Of a DNA stretch of 64,000 bases, positions 8,647 to 46,086 are shown one piece after another. The stretch's first letter is position 1. The number at the start of each line of letters is the position of its first letter. This DNA is from Chryseobacterium rhizoplanae. GTDB taxonomy: Bacteria > Bacteroidota > Bacteroidia > Flavobacteriales > Weeksellaceae. The translations under genes were made by a program, and so were the position numbers. The DNA lies in the NCBI RefSeq assembly GCF_900182655.1, contig NZ_FXTC01000002.1, forward strand, positions 248,001 through 312,000, given 5' to 3'. The notes under the pieces were generated by a model, which was not told the origin of the DNA, ran no database searches, and was given only the letters and a program-made list of their open reading frames with translations.

Positions 8647-9672
8647 ATGACTTCTGAAAACGCAAAACGATTTTTTGAAAACCACTTGGGTAAAAAATCT
8701 TCCGAATTCGTCACATTAGCTCAAAGTGGCTCTGCGAGGGTAAATTTTCTGGCCACTGCCGGCACTGAAAAATACATCATCACCTACAATGAAAATATCC
8801 CTGAAAATGAAAGTTTCCTTTACTATTCTGAGTTATTTTCAAATTTGAAACTCAATACCCCTTCTATTCTTGCTGTTTCTGATGACAGAAAAATGTACAT
8901 CCAGGAGTTTTTGGGACAACATACCCTTTCTGAGATTATTACAAAAGAACAACAATCTTCCACTGTAAGATCTTTGGTACAGCAGACATTGGAAAGACTT
9001 TTCCAAATGCAGATACAGACACAGGGAAAAATTGATTTTTCAAAAACCTTTGAATACGAAAGTTATGATGAGCTTCCTGTGATTCATGATCTTTATTATT
9101 TTAAAAATTTTGTAGCTGATGTCCTGGAACTTGAATACAACAAATCAACACTTTTAAAGGAATTCAAAAAAATCGCTTTACTCATTGAAAACATTGAGCC
9201 TAAAGGAATTATGATCCGTGATTTCCAGGCAAGAAATATCATGGTGAATGAAAAGAATGAAGTTTCTTTCATTGATTACCAGTCTGCAATGAAGGGCCCG
9301 TTAATGTACGACGTCATCTCCTTTCTTTTTCAGGCTAAAGCAAATTTCACCGATGATTTTAAACAGGAAATGCTGGAATTTTATATTCAGCAGTTTGAAA
9401 ATTCTGAAACAAGGATTCAATTGAAAGATGCGGTAATGCCTATTCAGATGATGAGATTTTTACAGGTATTGGGAGCTTATGGATTCCGGGGACTGATTCA
9501 GAGAAAACAGCATTTTATGGCCAGTCTGGAAAAAGGAATTCAGAATATTACACAATTTGCCGGCTCATGGGAGCACATGAATGATTATCCTGAACTGAAA
9601 AAAGTAATTCACCAGCTGACCTCAGACAGAGCAAAGCAAAAAATTGAGGAAATTATAAATTCAAACCATTAA
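8647..9672 (+). CDS. AmgK-like N-acetylmuramate/N-acetylglucosamine kinase (phosphotransferase family)
   Basis: APH-fold kinase of 341 aa. The catalytic loop reads IRDFQARNIM (190-199) with Asp192 and Asn197, and the metal-binding DFG-equivalent is FIDYQSA (Asp210). An RDF(H/Q)(S/A)RN catalytic loop resembles AmgK, the anomeric sugar kinase that phosphorylates MurNAc/GlcNAc at C1 for peptidoglycan recycling, rather than antibiotic kinases. Context supports this: a MurU-like nucleotidyltransferase lies 1 kb downstream, and AmgK and MurU act consecutively to yield UDP-MurNAc. An aminoglycoside-resistance role is unlikely. The last codons (N-H-stop) lie inside the left repeat that flanks the next gene. 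Substrate is inferred, not shown. Confidence 0.75.
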   Translation: MTSENAKRFFENHLGKKSSEFVTLAQSGSARVNFLATAGTEKYIITYNENIPENESFLYYSELFSNLKLNTPSILAVSDDRKMYIQEFLGQHTLSEIITKEQQSSTVRSLVQQTLERLFQMQIQTQGKIDFSKTFEYESYDELPVIHDLYYFKNFVADVLELEYNKSTLLKEFKKIALLIENIEPKGIMIRDFQARNIMVNEKNEVSFIDYQSAMKGPLMYDVISFLFQAKANFTDDFKQEMLEFYIQQFENSETRIQLKDAVMPIQMMRFLQVLGAYGFRGLIQRKQHFMASLEKGIQNITQFAGSWEHMNDYPELKKVIHQLTSDRAKQKIEEIINSNH

Positions 9673-9700
9673 GAAAACTTTAAGTCATTAAGAATATTAA
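9663..9700. repeat. left inverted repeat flanking the GxxExxY gene (CTTAA family)
   Basis: AAACCATTAAG (9663-9673) is the exact reverse complement of CTTAATGGTTT at 10156-10166. The adjacent 9669-9692 is, reverse-complemented, almost identical (23 of 24) to 34812-34835 upstream of birA. The repeat overlaps the stop codon of the preceding kinase gene. Confidence 0.7.
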
Positions 9701-9704
9701 GGTT

Positions 9705-10109
9705 ATGACCAAAAAAGAAATTACCCAACTGTCATATGAAATTACAGGCTTTGCTATTAAAGTCCATAAGGCTCTTGGTCCTGGTCTCCTTGAAAGTGTC
9801 TATGAAGAATGTCTAAAGATTGAACTTATTAAAAATGGCTATGATGTTAAACAGCAGCTGTATTTCCCAATCAATTATGAAGGGATAGAAATTGAAACAA
9901 AACTTGTTGTAGATCTCCTCGTCAACGATACAATTATTATAGAGTTAAAAGCTGTAGAAGAAGTCTTACCAATACATGAGGCACAACTACTCACTTACAT
10001 GAAAGTTCTTAAAAAGCCACAAGGCCTTCTTATTAACTTTTTTACGAACAATATTACCAAGTCAATGAAACCCTTTATTAATGATTTTTTTAAAGAACTT
10101 CCTGACTAA
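9705..10109 (+). CDS. GxxExxY family protein (PDDEXK-like nuclease fold)
   Basis: Small protein of 134 aa with the family motif GPGLLESVYEECL (25-37, GLLESVY being GxxExxY). The region VVDLLVNDTIIIELK supplies an Asp70 and Glu80-x-Lys82 arrangement like the PD-(D/E)xK nuclease core; nuclease activity is inference. The function of this family is unknown to me. The gene splits an otherwise tight AmgK-RapZ-MurU group and is bounded on both sides by an 11-bp perfect inverted repeat within longer degenerate CTTAA-rich arms, which suggests that it arrived as a small mobile cassette. No transposase is present. Confidence 0.85.
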   Translation: MTKKEITQLSYEITGFAIKVHKALGPGLLESVYEECLKIELIKNGYDVKQQLYFPINYEGIEIETKLVVDLLVNDTIIIELKAVEEVLPIHEAQLLTYMKVLKKPQGLLINFFTNNITKSMKPFINDFFKELPD

Positions 10110-10126
10110 ATTTTGATTTATCAAAA

Positions 10127-10166
10127 TCTTAACTTACCTTAAAAACTAAATAAGCCTTAATGGTTT
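10127..10166. repeat. right inverted repeat flanking the GxxExxY gene
   Basis: CTTAA units recur and end in CTTAATGGTTT (10156-10166), the exact inverse of 9663-9673. The inner part aligns to the left arm only with gaps. Confidence 0.65.
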
Positions 10167-10184
10167 AAAAATAAAAATATAGAA

Positions 10185-10592: not shown

Positions 10593-10594
10593 AA

Positions 10595-10695
10595 GATAAG
10601 CGATGATTGATAAATGATTATTTTTTCACTGTTATTTTAATGATCATTTATTAATTATAAAAGTTTTATCATTCATCAACTATCATTTACCAATT
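10595..10695. repeat. palindromic dispersed repeat, ATCATTTATCAATCATC family (copy without ORF)
   Basis: The left arm starts GATAAGCGATGATTGATAAA and ends ATGAT at 10618. Right-arm segments at 10632-10648 (TGATCATTTATTAATTA) and 10667-10695 (TTATCATTCATCAACTATC...) are imperfect inverses. The left arm matches the inverse of the repeat at 43280-43303 with one mismatch. It occupies almost the whole gap between the RapZ-domain gene and the MurU-like gene. Confidence 0.7.
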
Positions 10696-10703
10696 ATAAA
10701 AAA

Positions 10704-40858: not shown

Positions 40859-42904
40859 ATGAAAGCTCCACAGGCAAAAAAAATAGAAAAAATAATAGAA
40901 ACCCACGGCGATAAAAGGATCGATAATTACTTTTGGCTGAATGAAAGGGAAAACCCTGAAGTCATCAAATATATTGAGGAAGAAAATGCCTACGAAGAAT
41001 TCATCATGAAAGACACAGAAGCTCTTCAGGAAGAGCTTTTTGAAGAGATGAAAGCCCGTTATAAAAAGGATGATGAATCTCTGCCATATTTCTTTAATGA
41101 ATACTGGTATATTGTACGCTATGAGGAAGGCAAGGAGTATCCTATTTTCTGCAGAAAGCACAAAAGCCTTGACAACGAGGAAGAAATTGTGCTTGACGTT
41201 AATATGTTGGCGGAAGGCAAAGAATTTTTTGAAGTAGGAAGTGTAGCCGTAAGCCCTGGTAATGAACTGGCTTCTTTTTCTTCTGATGACGTAGGAAGAA
41301 GAATTTATACGCTTAATTTTAAAAATTTAAAAACCGGAGAAATCCTTCCGGACACTATTCCAAATACAACAGGAAAAGCAGTTTGGGCAAATGACAACCA
41401 GCATGTTTTTTACATTAGAAAAGACAAGAGTCTCCGTGCTTTTCAGGTATACAGACATCAATTAGGAACTGATTCTTCGGAAGATGTCCTGATTTTCCAT
41501 GAAAAGGATGATACTTTTGACGTCAATGTATTTAAGACAAAATCTTTACAATATATTTTTATTGCAAGTTCAAGCACTATTTCTGATGAACACCGCTTCA
41601 TCCCTTCTGACAATGTATTTGCAGAATGGACAGTAATACAGCCAAGAATAGACGATCTTGAATATTCAGTAGAGCATTACGAAGATGAATTCTACATCAT
41701 TACCAATGCTGATGATGCCATCAACTTTAAAATTGTAAAAGCAAAGATTGATAATTGTGGTATGGAAAACTGGGTAGATGTTATTCCACACCGCGCGGAA
41801 GTTTTGTTAGAGGGCTTTGAAATTTTCAAAGATTATCTGGTTCTTGAGGAAAGAGAAAGAGGACTGCTTCAGATCAAAATTATTGATGAGAAGACGCAGG
41901 AATCTTATTATTTACCATTCTCCGATCCTACTTATACAGCTTATATCGGAATTAATCTGGAATTTGATACAGAAATTTTACGTTACGGTTATACCTCTCT
42001 TACACAACCTAGTTCTACGTATGAGTATAATATGAAAGACAAAACCACAAAACTTCTGAAACAACAGGAAGTGCTGGGTGGAAAATTTGTTCCTGAAAAT
42101 TATATTTCAGAAAGAATATGGGCAGATTCGAGGGATGGAAAGACCAAAGTTCCTATTTCATTAGTCTACCATAAAGACACTAAAAAATCAGCTGACACTC
42201 CACTTCTTCTGTATGGATATGGAAGTTATGGGCATACGGTTGACGCCAGCTTTTCCAATGTAAGATTATCTATTCTTGACAGAGGCTTTATTTATGCTAT
42301 TGCTCACATCCGTGGTGGAGAGTATTTGGGAAGAGAATGGTATGAGGACGGGAAAATGTTATTCAAGAAAAATACATTCTTTGATTTTATAGATGCAGGG
42401 AAACATTTAATCAAAGAAAACTATACTTCATCGAGACATATGTATGCGATGGGAGGAAGTGCCGGAGGTCTGTTGGTAGGTGCTGTGGTCAATTACGAAC
42501 CTCAGTTATTCAACGGAATTGTGGCACAGGTTCCTTTCGTAGACGTTGTTTCCACAATGCTGGATGATACGATTCCTTTGACTACCGGAGAATATGATGA
42601 ATGGGGAAATCCAAATGATGAAGAATACTACCATTATATGAAAGACTATTCTCCATATGATAATGTAGAAGCTAAAGATTATCCACATATGCTGATCACA
42701 ACAGGATTCCACGATTCACAGGTGCAGTATTGGGAACCTGCCAAATGGACGGCAAAACTTAGAGAACTAAAGACAGACAATAATATTTTAGTCTTTAAAA
42801 CCGACATGAGTTCCGGACACGGAGGAGCAAGCGGAAGATTTGAATCTCTGAAAGAAGACGCATTAGAGTATGCATTTCTGTTGAAAATAAATGATAATTC
42901 ATAA
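40859..42904 (+). CDS. oligopeptidase B-like prolyl oligopeptidase family protein (S9A)
   Basis: Cytoplasmic serine peptidase of 681 aa with no signal peptide. An N-terminal propeller domain (about 70-400) is followed by the alpha/beta-hydrolase: IAHIRGGEYLGREWYEDGK, catalytic GGSAGGLL with Ser534, an Asp in the segment before ITTGFHDSQV, and His654 in SSGHGGASGR. The IRGGEYLGR block and length are those of oligopeptidase B, which cleaves after basic residues. The last four residues (NDNS) and stop are encoded by the left repeat arm bordering the four-helix-bundle gene, so the natural C-terminus may have been altered when that element inserted. Confidence 0.92.
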   Translation: MKAPQAKKIEKIIETHGDKRIDNYFWLNERENPEVIKYIEEENAYEEFIMKDTEALQEELFEEMKARYKKDDESLPYFFNEYWYIVRYEEGKEYPIFCRKHKSLDNEEEIVLDVNMLAEGKEFFEVGSVAVSPGNELASFSSDDVGRRIYTLNFKNLKTGEILPDTIPNTTGKAVWANDNQHVFYIRKDKSLRAFQVYRHQLGTDSSEDVLIFHEKDDTFDVNVFKTKSLQYIFIASSSTISDEHRFIPSDNVFAEWTVIQPRIDDLEYSVEHYEDEFYIITNADDAINFKIVKAKIDNCGMENWVDVIPHRAEVLLEGFEIFKDYLVLEERERGLLQIKIIDEKTQESYYLPFSDPTYTAYIGINLEFDTEILRYGYTSLTQPSSTYEYNMKDKTTKLLKQQEVLGGKFVPENYISERIWADSRDGKTKVPISLVYHKDTKKSADTPLLLYGYGSYGHTVDASFSNVRLSILDRGFIYAIAHIRGGEYLGREWYEDGKMLFKKNTFFDFIDAGKHLIKENYTSSRHMYAMGGSAGGLLVGAVVNYEPQLFNGIVAQVPFVDVVSTMLDDTIPLTTGEYDEWGNPNDEEYYHYMKDYSPYDNVEAKDYPHMLITTGFHDSQVQYWEPAKWTAKLRELKTDNNILVFKTDMSSGHGGASGRFESLKEDALEYAFLLKINDNS

Positions 42905-42918
42905 ATGATCAATGATGG
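42885..42918. repeat. left inverted-repeat arm of the four-helix-bundle element
   Basis: AATAAATGATAATTCATAAA and following TGATCAATGATGG form an imperfect inverse of 43278-43310. It spans the peptidase stop codon and the start codon of the enclosed gene. Confidence 0.6.
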
Positions 42919-43274
42919 ATAGCCCTGATTATAACACAATTTTTGCTTCTAAAACAAAGCAGCTAGCCGTCACTATTATTAAGGAATTATCTAAACAGCC
43001 CTATAACGAAGCGTTTTCAGTTATCAGAAAGCAAATATACAGATCTTCTACTTCCATGGCAGCCAATTACAGAGCCATGTGTAGAGCAAGATCAAAAGCT
43101 GAAAGATTTTCTAAAATATCTATAGTGATAGAGGAAACTGATGAAACTTTATTTTGGCTTGAAATGTTGGAAGAACTGGAATATGTTCAAAAAACAATTT
43201 TAACAGATATAAAAACAAACACTGAAGAAATACTGAAAGTAACTTCTTCGTACAGAAAAATGCTAAAGGAATGA
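42912..43274 (+). CDS. four-helix-bundle protein (S23 / 23S rRNA intervening-sequence protein family)
   Basis: A 120-aa all-helical protein. The family signature is clear: helix 1 with FASKTKQLAVTIIKEL, then FSVIRKQIYRSSTSMAANYR, RARSKAERFSKISIVIEETDE and TLFWLEMLEEL. Relatives are encoded inside intervening sequences of 23S rRNA genes (Leptospira, Coxiella) and also as accessory proteins of diversity-generating retroelements (Avd); no reverse transcriptase or rRNA is here. The gene is framed by inverted repeats whose sequence recurs, without a gene, at 10595-10695 and 46011-46086. Met1 or Met2 may be the start. Confidence 0.9.
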   Translation: MMDSPDYNTIFASKTKQLAVTIIKELSKQPYNEAFSVIRKQIYRSSTSMAANYRAMCRARSKAERFSKISIVIEETDETLFWLEMLEELEYVQKTILTDIKTNTEEILKVTSSYRKMLKE

Positions 43275-43275
43275 C

Positions 43276-43312
43276 TTTATCATTTATCAATCATCACTTA
43301 TTATTTATCAAA
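43276..43312. repeat. right inverted-repeat arm of the four-helix-bundle element
   Basis: TTTATCATTTATCAATCATC followed by ACTTATTATTTATCAAATTAT. Its inverse matches the left arm of the repeat at 10595-10618 with one mismatch over about 23 bases. It reaches to the ATG of the next gene. Confidence 0.7.
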
Positions 43313-46004: not shown

Positions 46005-46010
46005 AAAAAT

Positions 46011-46086
46011 AAATGATAGATGATAAGCGATAAATGATAAAAAGATCTCTTTCATATCAACCATCATTTATCATTCATCAATTATA
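46011..46086. repeat. palindromic dispersed repeat between kinase and regulator genes (copy without ORF)
   Basis: Left arm AAATGATAGATGATAAGCGA (46011-46030) continuing TAAATGATAAAA; right arm CATCATTTATCATTCATCAA (46062-46081) then TTATAG. The arms are imperfect inverses and share GATAAGCGAT and ATCATTTATCA with the copies at 10595 and 43278. Confidence 0.7.

What the first reader, a model, noticed from the sequence alone, without database searches (positions are those of the whole stretch)
42885..43312. Four-helix-bundle gene inside an inverted-repeat cassette with empty relatives in the same window
The S23-type gene (42912-43274) is framed by arms built on ATCATTTATCAATCATC. The same sequence occurs as gene-less palindromes at 10595-10695 and 46011-46086; the right arm's inverse matches 10595-10618 with one mismatch over about 23 bases. 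All three sit between a stop codon and the next gene; at this locus the left arm even encodes the last residues and stop of the peptidase. S23 proteins are known from rRNA intervening sequences, which are also inverted-repeat bounded. This looks like a protein-coding intergenic intervening-sequence element with non-coding derivatives, mobilised by an unknown mechanism.
Basis: partly seen in the sequence, partly recalled or inferred. Interest (0 to 1): 0.72.

Follow-up and report, generated by a model that had tools for sequence, protein, structure and literature searches.

The report
Mobile S23 gene in heptad palindrome
In a Chryseobacterium-like genome, a small gene related to the proteins found inside ribosomal-RNA intervening sequences sits between two mirror-image arms built of 7-base repeats that fill the gap between two neighbouring genes; related species have the same gap empty, filled with a different version, or with a decayed version, so the unit is likely a small mobile element that lives between genes, and how it moves is not yet known.

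Summary
In 60 genus genomes (own included) the same junction is empty in 14 and has FHB sequence in 14 (10 intact, two types about 55% identical); of 16 short gene-less fillings, five keep sequence of the FHB type-B 3' end. In this genome 9 of 10 scored FHB genes have matching arms (z>=2), in a phylum draw 14 of 29, each with its own repeat. Similar FHB genes at different sites carry similar arms. A GxxExxY nuclease-family gene in this window is built alike. The FHB protein is under purifying selection and has the S23/Avd fold.

The parts
42888..42911 (+). left arm, 7-base units; carries the last peptidase codons and stop (to 42904) and abuts the FHB start
   Evidence: sequence; duplex with right arm; empty-site comparison
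42912..43274 (+). S23 / four-helix-bundle (FHB) protein gene, 120 aa
   Evidence: TIGR02436, PF05635; predicted fold like 2rld, 2gsc and, less strongly, Avd 4dwl
43275..43312 (+). right arm, 7-base units, ends at the start codon of the next gene
   Evidence: lag-7 z 2.5
40859..42904 (+). upstream gene, prolyl oligopeptidase family (S9); its C-terminus differs between empty and occupied sites
   Evidence: PF02897/PF00326
43315..43656 (+). downstream gene, 113 aa, no Pfam or NCBIfam match
   Evidence: synteny anchor
10593..10703 (.). gene-less period-7 palindrome filling the junction after a RapZ C-terminal-domain gene
   Evidence: lag-7 z 4.1, fold z -3.6; fold z -3.0; TAATGAG-type palindrome in relatives
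46008..46086 (.). gene-less period-7 palindrome between histidine kinase and response regulator genes
   Evidence: lag-7 z 5.9; fold z -4.8; several of 30 genomes lack it
9705..10109 (+). GxxExxY protein (PD-(D/E)XK nuclease superfamily), second cargo type, in its own inverted arms
   Evidence: PF13366 132.8 bits, TIGR04256 140.1 bits; inverted-repeat z 3.9 (L390); full-length, in pieces or unmatched among 30 genomes
9660..9704 (+). left arm of the GxxExxY cassette
   Evidence: inverted-repeat score 17 (L390)
10110..10169 (+). right arm of the GxxExxY cassette
   Evidence: L390

Best explanation
The S23/four-helix-bundle gene at 42912-43274 lies between two inverted arms of 7-base units that fill the junction between the peptidase gene and the next gene, and gene plus arms are likely one small mobile element of the intergenic space that would be transcribed with its operon and fold arm to arm, much like the S23-coding intervening sequences of 23S rRNA. 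Shown by calls: the arms and their period of 7; matching arms around 9 of 10 scored FHB genes of this genome; better pairing of cognate than of swapped arms at another site; purifying selection on the protein; empty, occupied, swapped and decayed states of the same junction; similar FHB genes at different sites carrying similar arms. Inferred: that the unit spreads as an element, that pairing acts at the RNA level (RNase III cutting of the operon transcript would be the expected outcome), and that the S23/Avd-fold protein binds its own arms and helps to keep or spread them. How new copies are made is not shown; exchange between species at an occupied junction can run by short-tract homologous recombination.
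For: Arms: in the own genome 10 of 11 FHB genes could be scored, 7 with inverted-repeat z>=3 and 9 with z>=2; of 54 other window genes 1 has z>=3 (the GxxExxY gene) and 4 z>=2, two of which border the FHB arms (Fisher for z>=3 1.5e-6). Phylum draw: 9 of 29 z>=3 and 14 of 29 z>=2, against 1 and 4 of 74 other genes in these and the own loci. FHB arms and gene-less palindromes share an excess at lags 7 and 14, absent in 105 control 50-mers. Covariation: at the second FHB site (27 species) cognate arm pairs are more stable than swapped ones, 4 of 20000 permutations as good; gene-less palindromes 0 of 20000 at each of two sites. Selection: dN/dS median 0.094 over 94 pairs, 18 of 27 genes intact. 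Turnover: of 60 genomes 14 empty, 14 with FHB sequence (10 intact), 32 other at this junction; at least 22, 15 and 9 state changes at three junctions. Unit: among 109 FHB entries at 37 sites, pairs at different sites with >=70% identical FHB have mean arm similarity 21-24, against about 8 for pairs under 50%; Chryseobacterium paridis and C. lathyri each hold copies at two sites. Orientation: 30 of 35 FHB genes lie in sense between two co-directional genes against 76 of 123 controls, p 0.005.
Against: Arm-to-arm closure is not the minimum-energy fold of this cassette, and its arm duplex is only modestly better than shuffled (26 of 1000). 15 of 29 phylum-draw FHB genes have z<2. In the first genus test arms swapped between species at one site scored nearly as well as cognate ones (15.1 against 15.4). 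Y1-transposase genes also lie in inverted repeats (9 of 29 with z>=3), so such flanks are not peculiar to FHB genes. No target-site duplication was recognised, and bases at the junction are replaced, not only added. Flanks are mosaics of short interspecies tracts, and in some trios a few flank sites match the same-allele relative. FHB proteins group by site (two sites). The high-identity pairs at different sites are few independent site pairs (4, 3 and 2 in the top bins). No transcript data.
Confidence: 0.55

Rival explanations
1. Ordinary intergenic allele exchange: FHB genes are old accessory operon genes with hairpin spacers; the patchy distribution comes from loss and from homologous recombination between species, without element mobility.
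For: FHB proteins group by site at the two sites treed. The peptidase flank is a mosaic of short tracts between species, e.g. G016 against G000 at 2-3% in the last 200 bases and 9-14% in the next 300 downstream. Occupied junctions lose the gene by internal deletion.
Against: Near-identical cassettes with the same octamer arms sit at different sites, both in one genome in two species. At the 10.6 kb junction G000 and G020 differ in the whole palindrome but agree against same-allele G002 at 8 of 8 diagnostic sites, the nearest 25 bases upstream and 27 downstream, so for that pair a tract would have to be very short. Nearest-by-flank neighbours share the class in only 17 of 40 and 27 of 60 genomes, unclassified ones counted as a class.
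Confidence: 0.25
2. Non-coding spacers only: the period-7 palindromes are mRNA stabilisers or terminators whose arms are kept by selection or by hairpin-templated correction, and FHB genes merely sit inside them.
For: Gene-less palindromes exist and pair better cognate than swapped. They fill whole junctions inside operons.
Against: The association with two unrelated gene families is far above controls, and FHB similarity predicts arm similarity between sites.
Confidence: 0.12
3. REP/RAYT system: the palindromes are REPINs moved by a Y1 transposase.
For: 53 of 60 genus genomes encode Y1_Tnp proteins; their genes also lie beside palindromes (9 of 29 with inverted-repeat z>=3).
Against: Those palindromes are of another kind (e.g. 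GGCTTTAGCC; GAGTCCCGAAGGGACG) with no lag-7 signal; 2 of 30 loci hold a single heptamer word.
Confidence: 0.03
4. The FHB protein is a DGR accessory protein (Avd) of a retroelement nearby.
For: Avd-like fold (4dwl TM 0.74, 8ub7 TM 0.75, but Foldseek E 0.03-0.04).
Against: The eight further neighbours scanned between 38.3 and 48 kb, and the two adjoining genes, show no reverse transcriptase; the closest solved relative by sequence is the S23-family protein 2rld.
Confidence: 0.02

Closest known systems
S23-coding intervening sequence (IVS) of 23S rRNA, e.g. Coxiella burnetii (PMC4990558, passages read)
   Same: about 430 nt, terminal complementary arms, an ORF of the same protein family; the ORF decays
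   Different: lies between protein genes, not in rRNA helix 45; arms are period-7 arrays that differ from copy to copy; FHB gene under purifying selection here; RNase III excision untested
REPIN/RAYT elements
   Same: intergenic palindromes beside a gene of one family plus gene-less palindromes elsewhere
   Different: no Y1 transposase, period-7 arms, different palindromes
MITEs and Correia/NEMIS-type RNase III substrates (recalled, from no call)
   Same: short inverted-repeat elements near gene ends
   Different: here a conserved protein is coded; no target duplication seen, no parent transposase found
TAACTGA intergenic heptamer repeats of Beggiatoaceae, Cyanobacteria and some Bacteroidetes (PMC4679880, passages read)
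   Same: heptamer unit, intergenic, patchy distribution that its authors read as horizontal spread without an evident mechanism
   Different: direct repeats of one fixed heptamer; the terms 'four helix', 'S23' and 'intervening' have 0 hits in that text
DGR accessory protein Avd; homology with PF05635 is noted in PMC10053308 (passage read)
   Same: fold
   Different: no RT among the neighbours scanned, about 10% identity

Membership tests
S23 / 23S_rRNA_IVP / TIGR02436 protein family | score over curated cut-off and four-helix bundle fold | tested here: met
rRNA intervening sequence (IVS) | located inside an rRNA gene | tested here: not met
   between an S9 peptidase gene and a 113-aa gene
rRNA intervening sequence (IVS) | complementary ends that form a closing stem | tested here: inconclusive
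   arm duplex -11.0 kcal/mol, 26 of 1000 shuffles as good; not the closing helix of the MFE fold; cognate arms pair better than swapped at another site
rRNA intervening sequence (IVS) | excised by RNase III | not testable with these tools
   needs RNA; shown in vitro for the Coxiella IVS (PMC4990558 passages)
Inverted-repeat transposable element / MITE | same unit at several sites, and empty orthologous sites | tested here: met
   14 of 60 empty at this junction; for another FHB type carA-carB, a second junction and a third
Inverted-repeat transposable element / MITE | target-site duplication | tested here: not met
   none seen by eye when empty and occupied junctions are compared at this site
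Inverted-repeat transposable element / MITE | transposase, own or in trans | tested here: inconclusive
   none among the neighbours scanned; Y1_Tnp disfavoured by palindrome type; other transposases not sought
REPIN/RAYT | palindromes of the same kind flank the Y1 transposase gene | tested here: not met
   29 scored loci
DGR (Avd) | linked reverse transcriptase and template/variable repeats | tested here: not met
   no RT among the ten neighbours scanned; repeats not sought

The most novel reading that the evidence does not exclude
A transposase-free counterpart of RAYT/REPIN: S23/Avd-fold proteins and GxxExxY nucleases are the helper genes of palindromic intergenic elements whose arms are tandem oligomers kept complementary while their sequence drifts freely; gene-less palindromes are the passengers, and the rRNA intervening sequences known for decades are just the members that landed in rRNA.
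Probability: 0.3. Interest if true: 0.88.

Novelty: new variant of a known kind. Interest (0 to 1): 0.7.

Why it matters
S23/four-helix-bundle genes occur in 111 of 148 Bacteroidota genomes drawn, and the Coxiella paper says that the S23p family has no known function (passage). If they belong to stem-bounded intergenic elements, they gain a testable role (arm-binding, RNA processing or spread), the origin of rRNA intervening sequences gets a possible reservoir, and a common class of operon spacers becomes recognisable. A second, nuclease-family cargo with the same build (genes in 73 of 148 genomes) points to the arms as the unit under selection.

Tried and rejected
RAYT/REPIN and DGR: rejected as above. 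Rfam: only a sub-threshold SAM-II match at 43218-43276 (20.4 bits against a gathering score of 44), taken as chance. Flank linkage: pooled trio counts show no decline towards the junction; single trios are mixed; windowed divergence shows mosaic tracts, so recombination stays a live rival. Period 7 is not found in GxxExxY arms, which show a weak broad excess at lags 8-12: same build, different unit. Stop codons in all three frames of the left arm as the reason for a unit length not divisible by 3: above shuffles in the own genome (10 of 200 as good), at the second site and at 10.6 kb (0 of 200 each), not phylum-wide (51 of 200); not claimed. Origin of the 16 short gene-less fillings: FHB-derived only in five, G079 not supported, the other ten not (G059 resembles the arm alone). 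PADLOC: FHB none; GxxExxY a weak Cas4 match, E 1.3e-4. Literature: 10 full-text searches of an open-access library; I read the listings, and passages of six papers. None of these ties four-helix-bundle genes outside rRNA to inverted heptamer arms; subscription papers are not covered.
Full report
WHAT IS THERE. The gene at 42912-43274 codes a 120-aa protein over the curated cut-offs of TIGR02436 and PF05635. Its predicted structure (mean pLDDT 92.9) matches the S23-family protein 2rld (query TM 0.68-0.81, E down to 1.2e-5), Xcc0516 2gsc (0.76-0.80, E from 1.6e-3) and, more weakly by E-value, the DGR protein Avd 4dwl (0.69-0.74, E from 0.026). It lies between an S9 peptidase gene and a 113-aa gene of unknown family, all in one direction. 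The left arm (42888-42911) and right arm (43275-43312) are inverted versions of a 7-base unit. The left arm is read as the C-terminus of the peptidase.

SAME JUNCTION IN RELATIVES. I located the peptidase in 60 genus genomes, own included, and read the junction in all 60. Fourteen are empty: the two genes overlap by 4 or 8 bases. Fourteen have a tblastn match to the FHB protein: 10 with an intact gene, 3 broken, 1 remnant of 24 residues. Sixteen have 21-120 bases without such a match. Of these, G032, G007, G061 and G065 match FHB type B coding sequence against at least one of three references in at most 1 of 200 shuffles, G015 in 3 of 200; the 3' end with arm matches in 0 of 200 against all three in these five; G079 and the other ten are not supported as FHB derivatives. 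Sixteen have 191-252 bases, several visibly with a short ORF. The intact genes are of two types, A (80-100% to ours) and B (50-57%). On a tree of flanking genes of three other junctions (one on another contig, two about 3 and 32 kb away on this one), types A, B, empty and remnant all occur within one well-supported clade of eight close species; at least 22 changes of state are needed, with all other fillings as one state and G079 counted as a remnant (some inner branches are weak, 17 of 60 rows have under half of the columns).

OTHER JUNCTIONS. At the second FHB site of this genome, 27 of 60 genomes have FHB sequence, 23 a GATAAAT-type gene-less palindrome, 2 a TAATGAG-type one and 8 were not classified; at least 15 changes among the 52 classified. 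At the 10.6 kb palindrome, 20 of 40 have a TAATGAG type, 11 a GAT type and 9 were not classified, at least 9 changes among the 31; these two counts are on a tree that includes the sites' own flanks. None of the 40, and none of 30 at 46 kb, has an FHB match to four query types; several at 46 kb lack the palindrome (the simple classifier put some visible palindromes in its short class, so its 46 kb counts are not used). The nearest relative by flank often has the other class. For G000 against G020 at 10.6 kb the flanks agree against G002 at 8 of 8 diagnostic sites within 105 bases upstream and 60 downstream, although the palindromes are wholly different; against other same-allele relatives one or two downstream sites, and for G016 also a 3-base indel at the stop, go the other way, and in the G006 trios one to four sites do, save in one comparison with none in the stretch beyond position 75. 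Windowed divergence shows mosaic tracts in the peptidase gene, so short-tract recombination between species is likely in this genus and may carry alleles between species.

ARMS AROUND FHB GENES. The own genome has 11 TIGR02436 genes. Ten were scored (one with an internal stop was not called): 9 have inverted-repeat z>=2, L355 has none. Of 54 other window genes one has z>=3, the GxxExxY gene, and four z>=2, of which two are the peptidase and the gene after the cassette, which share its arms. The phylum search gave the best-scoring loci of its genomes, 30 with one of our own; of the other 29, some near duplicates, 14 have z>=2, against 4 of 74 other genes in these and the own loci. Automatic start calls and more distant arms may explain some misses (by eye); I did not re-score them. 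In 43 genus loci, broken ones included, the cognate mean score is 15.4 against 9.5 for arms from different sites and 15.1 for arms of other species at the same site. Five Omnitrophota loci (L311-L315) score 10-19. The oligomer differs between cassettes at different sites. Lag-7 and lag-14 excess is seen in own, phylum and second-site FHB arms and in the gene-less palindromes of two junctions, not in 105 control segments.

ARMS CO-VARY AND TRAVEL WITH THE GENE. At the second site cognate arm duplexes average -28.6 kcal/mol against -26.0 for permuted ones, 4 of 20000 permutations as low; gene-less palindromes 0 of 20000 at two sites. Relatedness is not modelled, and hairpin-templated correction could give the same signal. 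Among 109 FHB entries at 37 sites (four own loci are entered twice), pairs at different sites with FHB identity of at least 70% (456 pairs, few independent site pairs) have mean arm similarity 21-24, those of 50-70% 11, the rest about 8. One FHB type with octamer arms of the AATGTAAC kind lies between carA and carB in Chryseobacterium, Elizabethkingia, Epilithonimonas, Kaistella and others, and in other species before a gene that I read as an acyl-CoA acetyltransferase (name recalled); C. paridis has both, C. lathyri has the first and a truncated second copy.

PROTEIN UNDER SELECTION, SENSE ORIENTATION. dN/dS is 0.094 (median of 94 pairs, 18 intact of 27) at the second site against 0.014 for the upstream gene; at this junction 0.06-0.15 in 10 of 11 pairs with dS under 1.2, and 0.49 in one pair with dS 0.013. 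FHB genes lie in sense between co-directional neighbours in 30 of 35 called cases against 76 of 123 controls (p 0.005); GxxExxY 25 of 33, p 0.10. Selection against harmful insertions would also give such a bias.

SECOND CARGO. The gene at 9705-10109 is a GxxExxY protein of the PD-(D/E)XK superfamily. Of 34 such loci 33 were scored, one at a wrong start: 18 have z>=3, with arm scores up to 35. At its junction a match over the full length is found in G000, G027, G060 and G077, pieces in G005, G004 and G016, none in the other 23 of 30 genomes. GxxExxY arms lack the period of 7. Control for specificity: Y1-transposase genes of the genus also lie in inverted repeats (9 of 29 z>=3), without period 7.

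MECHANISM. I commit to a stem-bounded intergenic element related in build to the rRNA intervening sequences: transcribed with the operon, folded arm to arm, with a protein that probably binds the arms. The Coxiella IVS (428 nt, terminal 28-bp stem, S23 ORF, RNase III cleavage in vitro; passages of PMC4990558) is the closest model, and its authors mention mobility only as a hypothesis. Transcription, excision, arm-binding and the copying step are all inferred here.

LIMITS. Search genomes are one per species and unnamed; no strain-level data, no RNA. The genus name is inferred from 92-97% identical proteins in named Chryseobacterium records. Absence from print rests on 10 searches of an open-access library.

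Noticed in passing
window 9705-10109: GxxExxY (PD-(D/E)XK) gene in its own inverted arms; matched over full length in 4, in pieces in 3, unmatched in 23 of 30 genomes at the same junction.
   Followed up: partly
L311 (Omnitrophica MAG): An FHB cassette with different arms lies between carA and carB, the same junction as one FHB type of Chryseobacterium: independent reuse of a junction, transfer, or contamination.
   Followed up: no
L321, L331 against L275-L302: One junction cluster (before a gene that I read as an acyl-CoA acetyltransferase, name recalled) holds different FHB types with different arms in distant Bacteroidota: junctions may be reused.
   Followed up: no
G000:C3:127955-127999, C3:138906-138957, C3:253030-253074 (L015, L020, L027): Plain tandem arrays of related heptamers, (ATCAATT)n and (ATCATTC)n, not inverted.
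   Followed up: no
peptidase junction in G017, G022, G013 and others (L092, L096, L114): 16 of 60 genomes have 191-252 bases at this junction; several visibly hold a short ORF with a hydrophobic start.
   Followed up: no
second FHB site, gene-less allele (e.g. L194, L224): The gene-less palindrome keeps a similar loop (CAATGGCCAAGAATTTGCTTAAGCAG in many) across distant species; function unknown.
   Followed up: no
G000:C1:810838-811155 and C1:812658-813002: One FHB gene lies about 1.5 kb from a Y1 transposase gene; similar neighbours in G005 and G034.
   Followed up: no
Flavobacterium columnare (PMC5524665, table passage): A four helix bundle gene listed between guanylate kinase and nicotinate mononucleotide adenylyltransferase genes, with gaps of about 35 bases in strain 94-081; arms not examined.
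   Followed up: no
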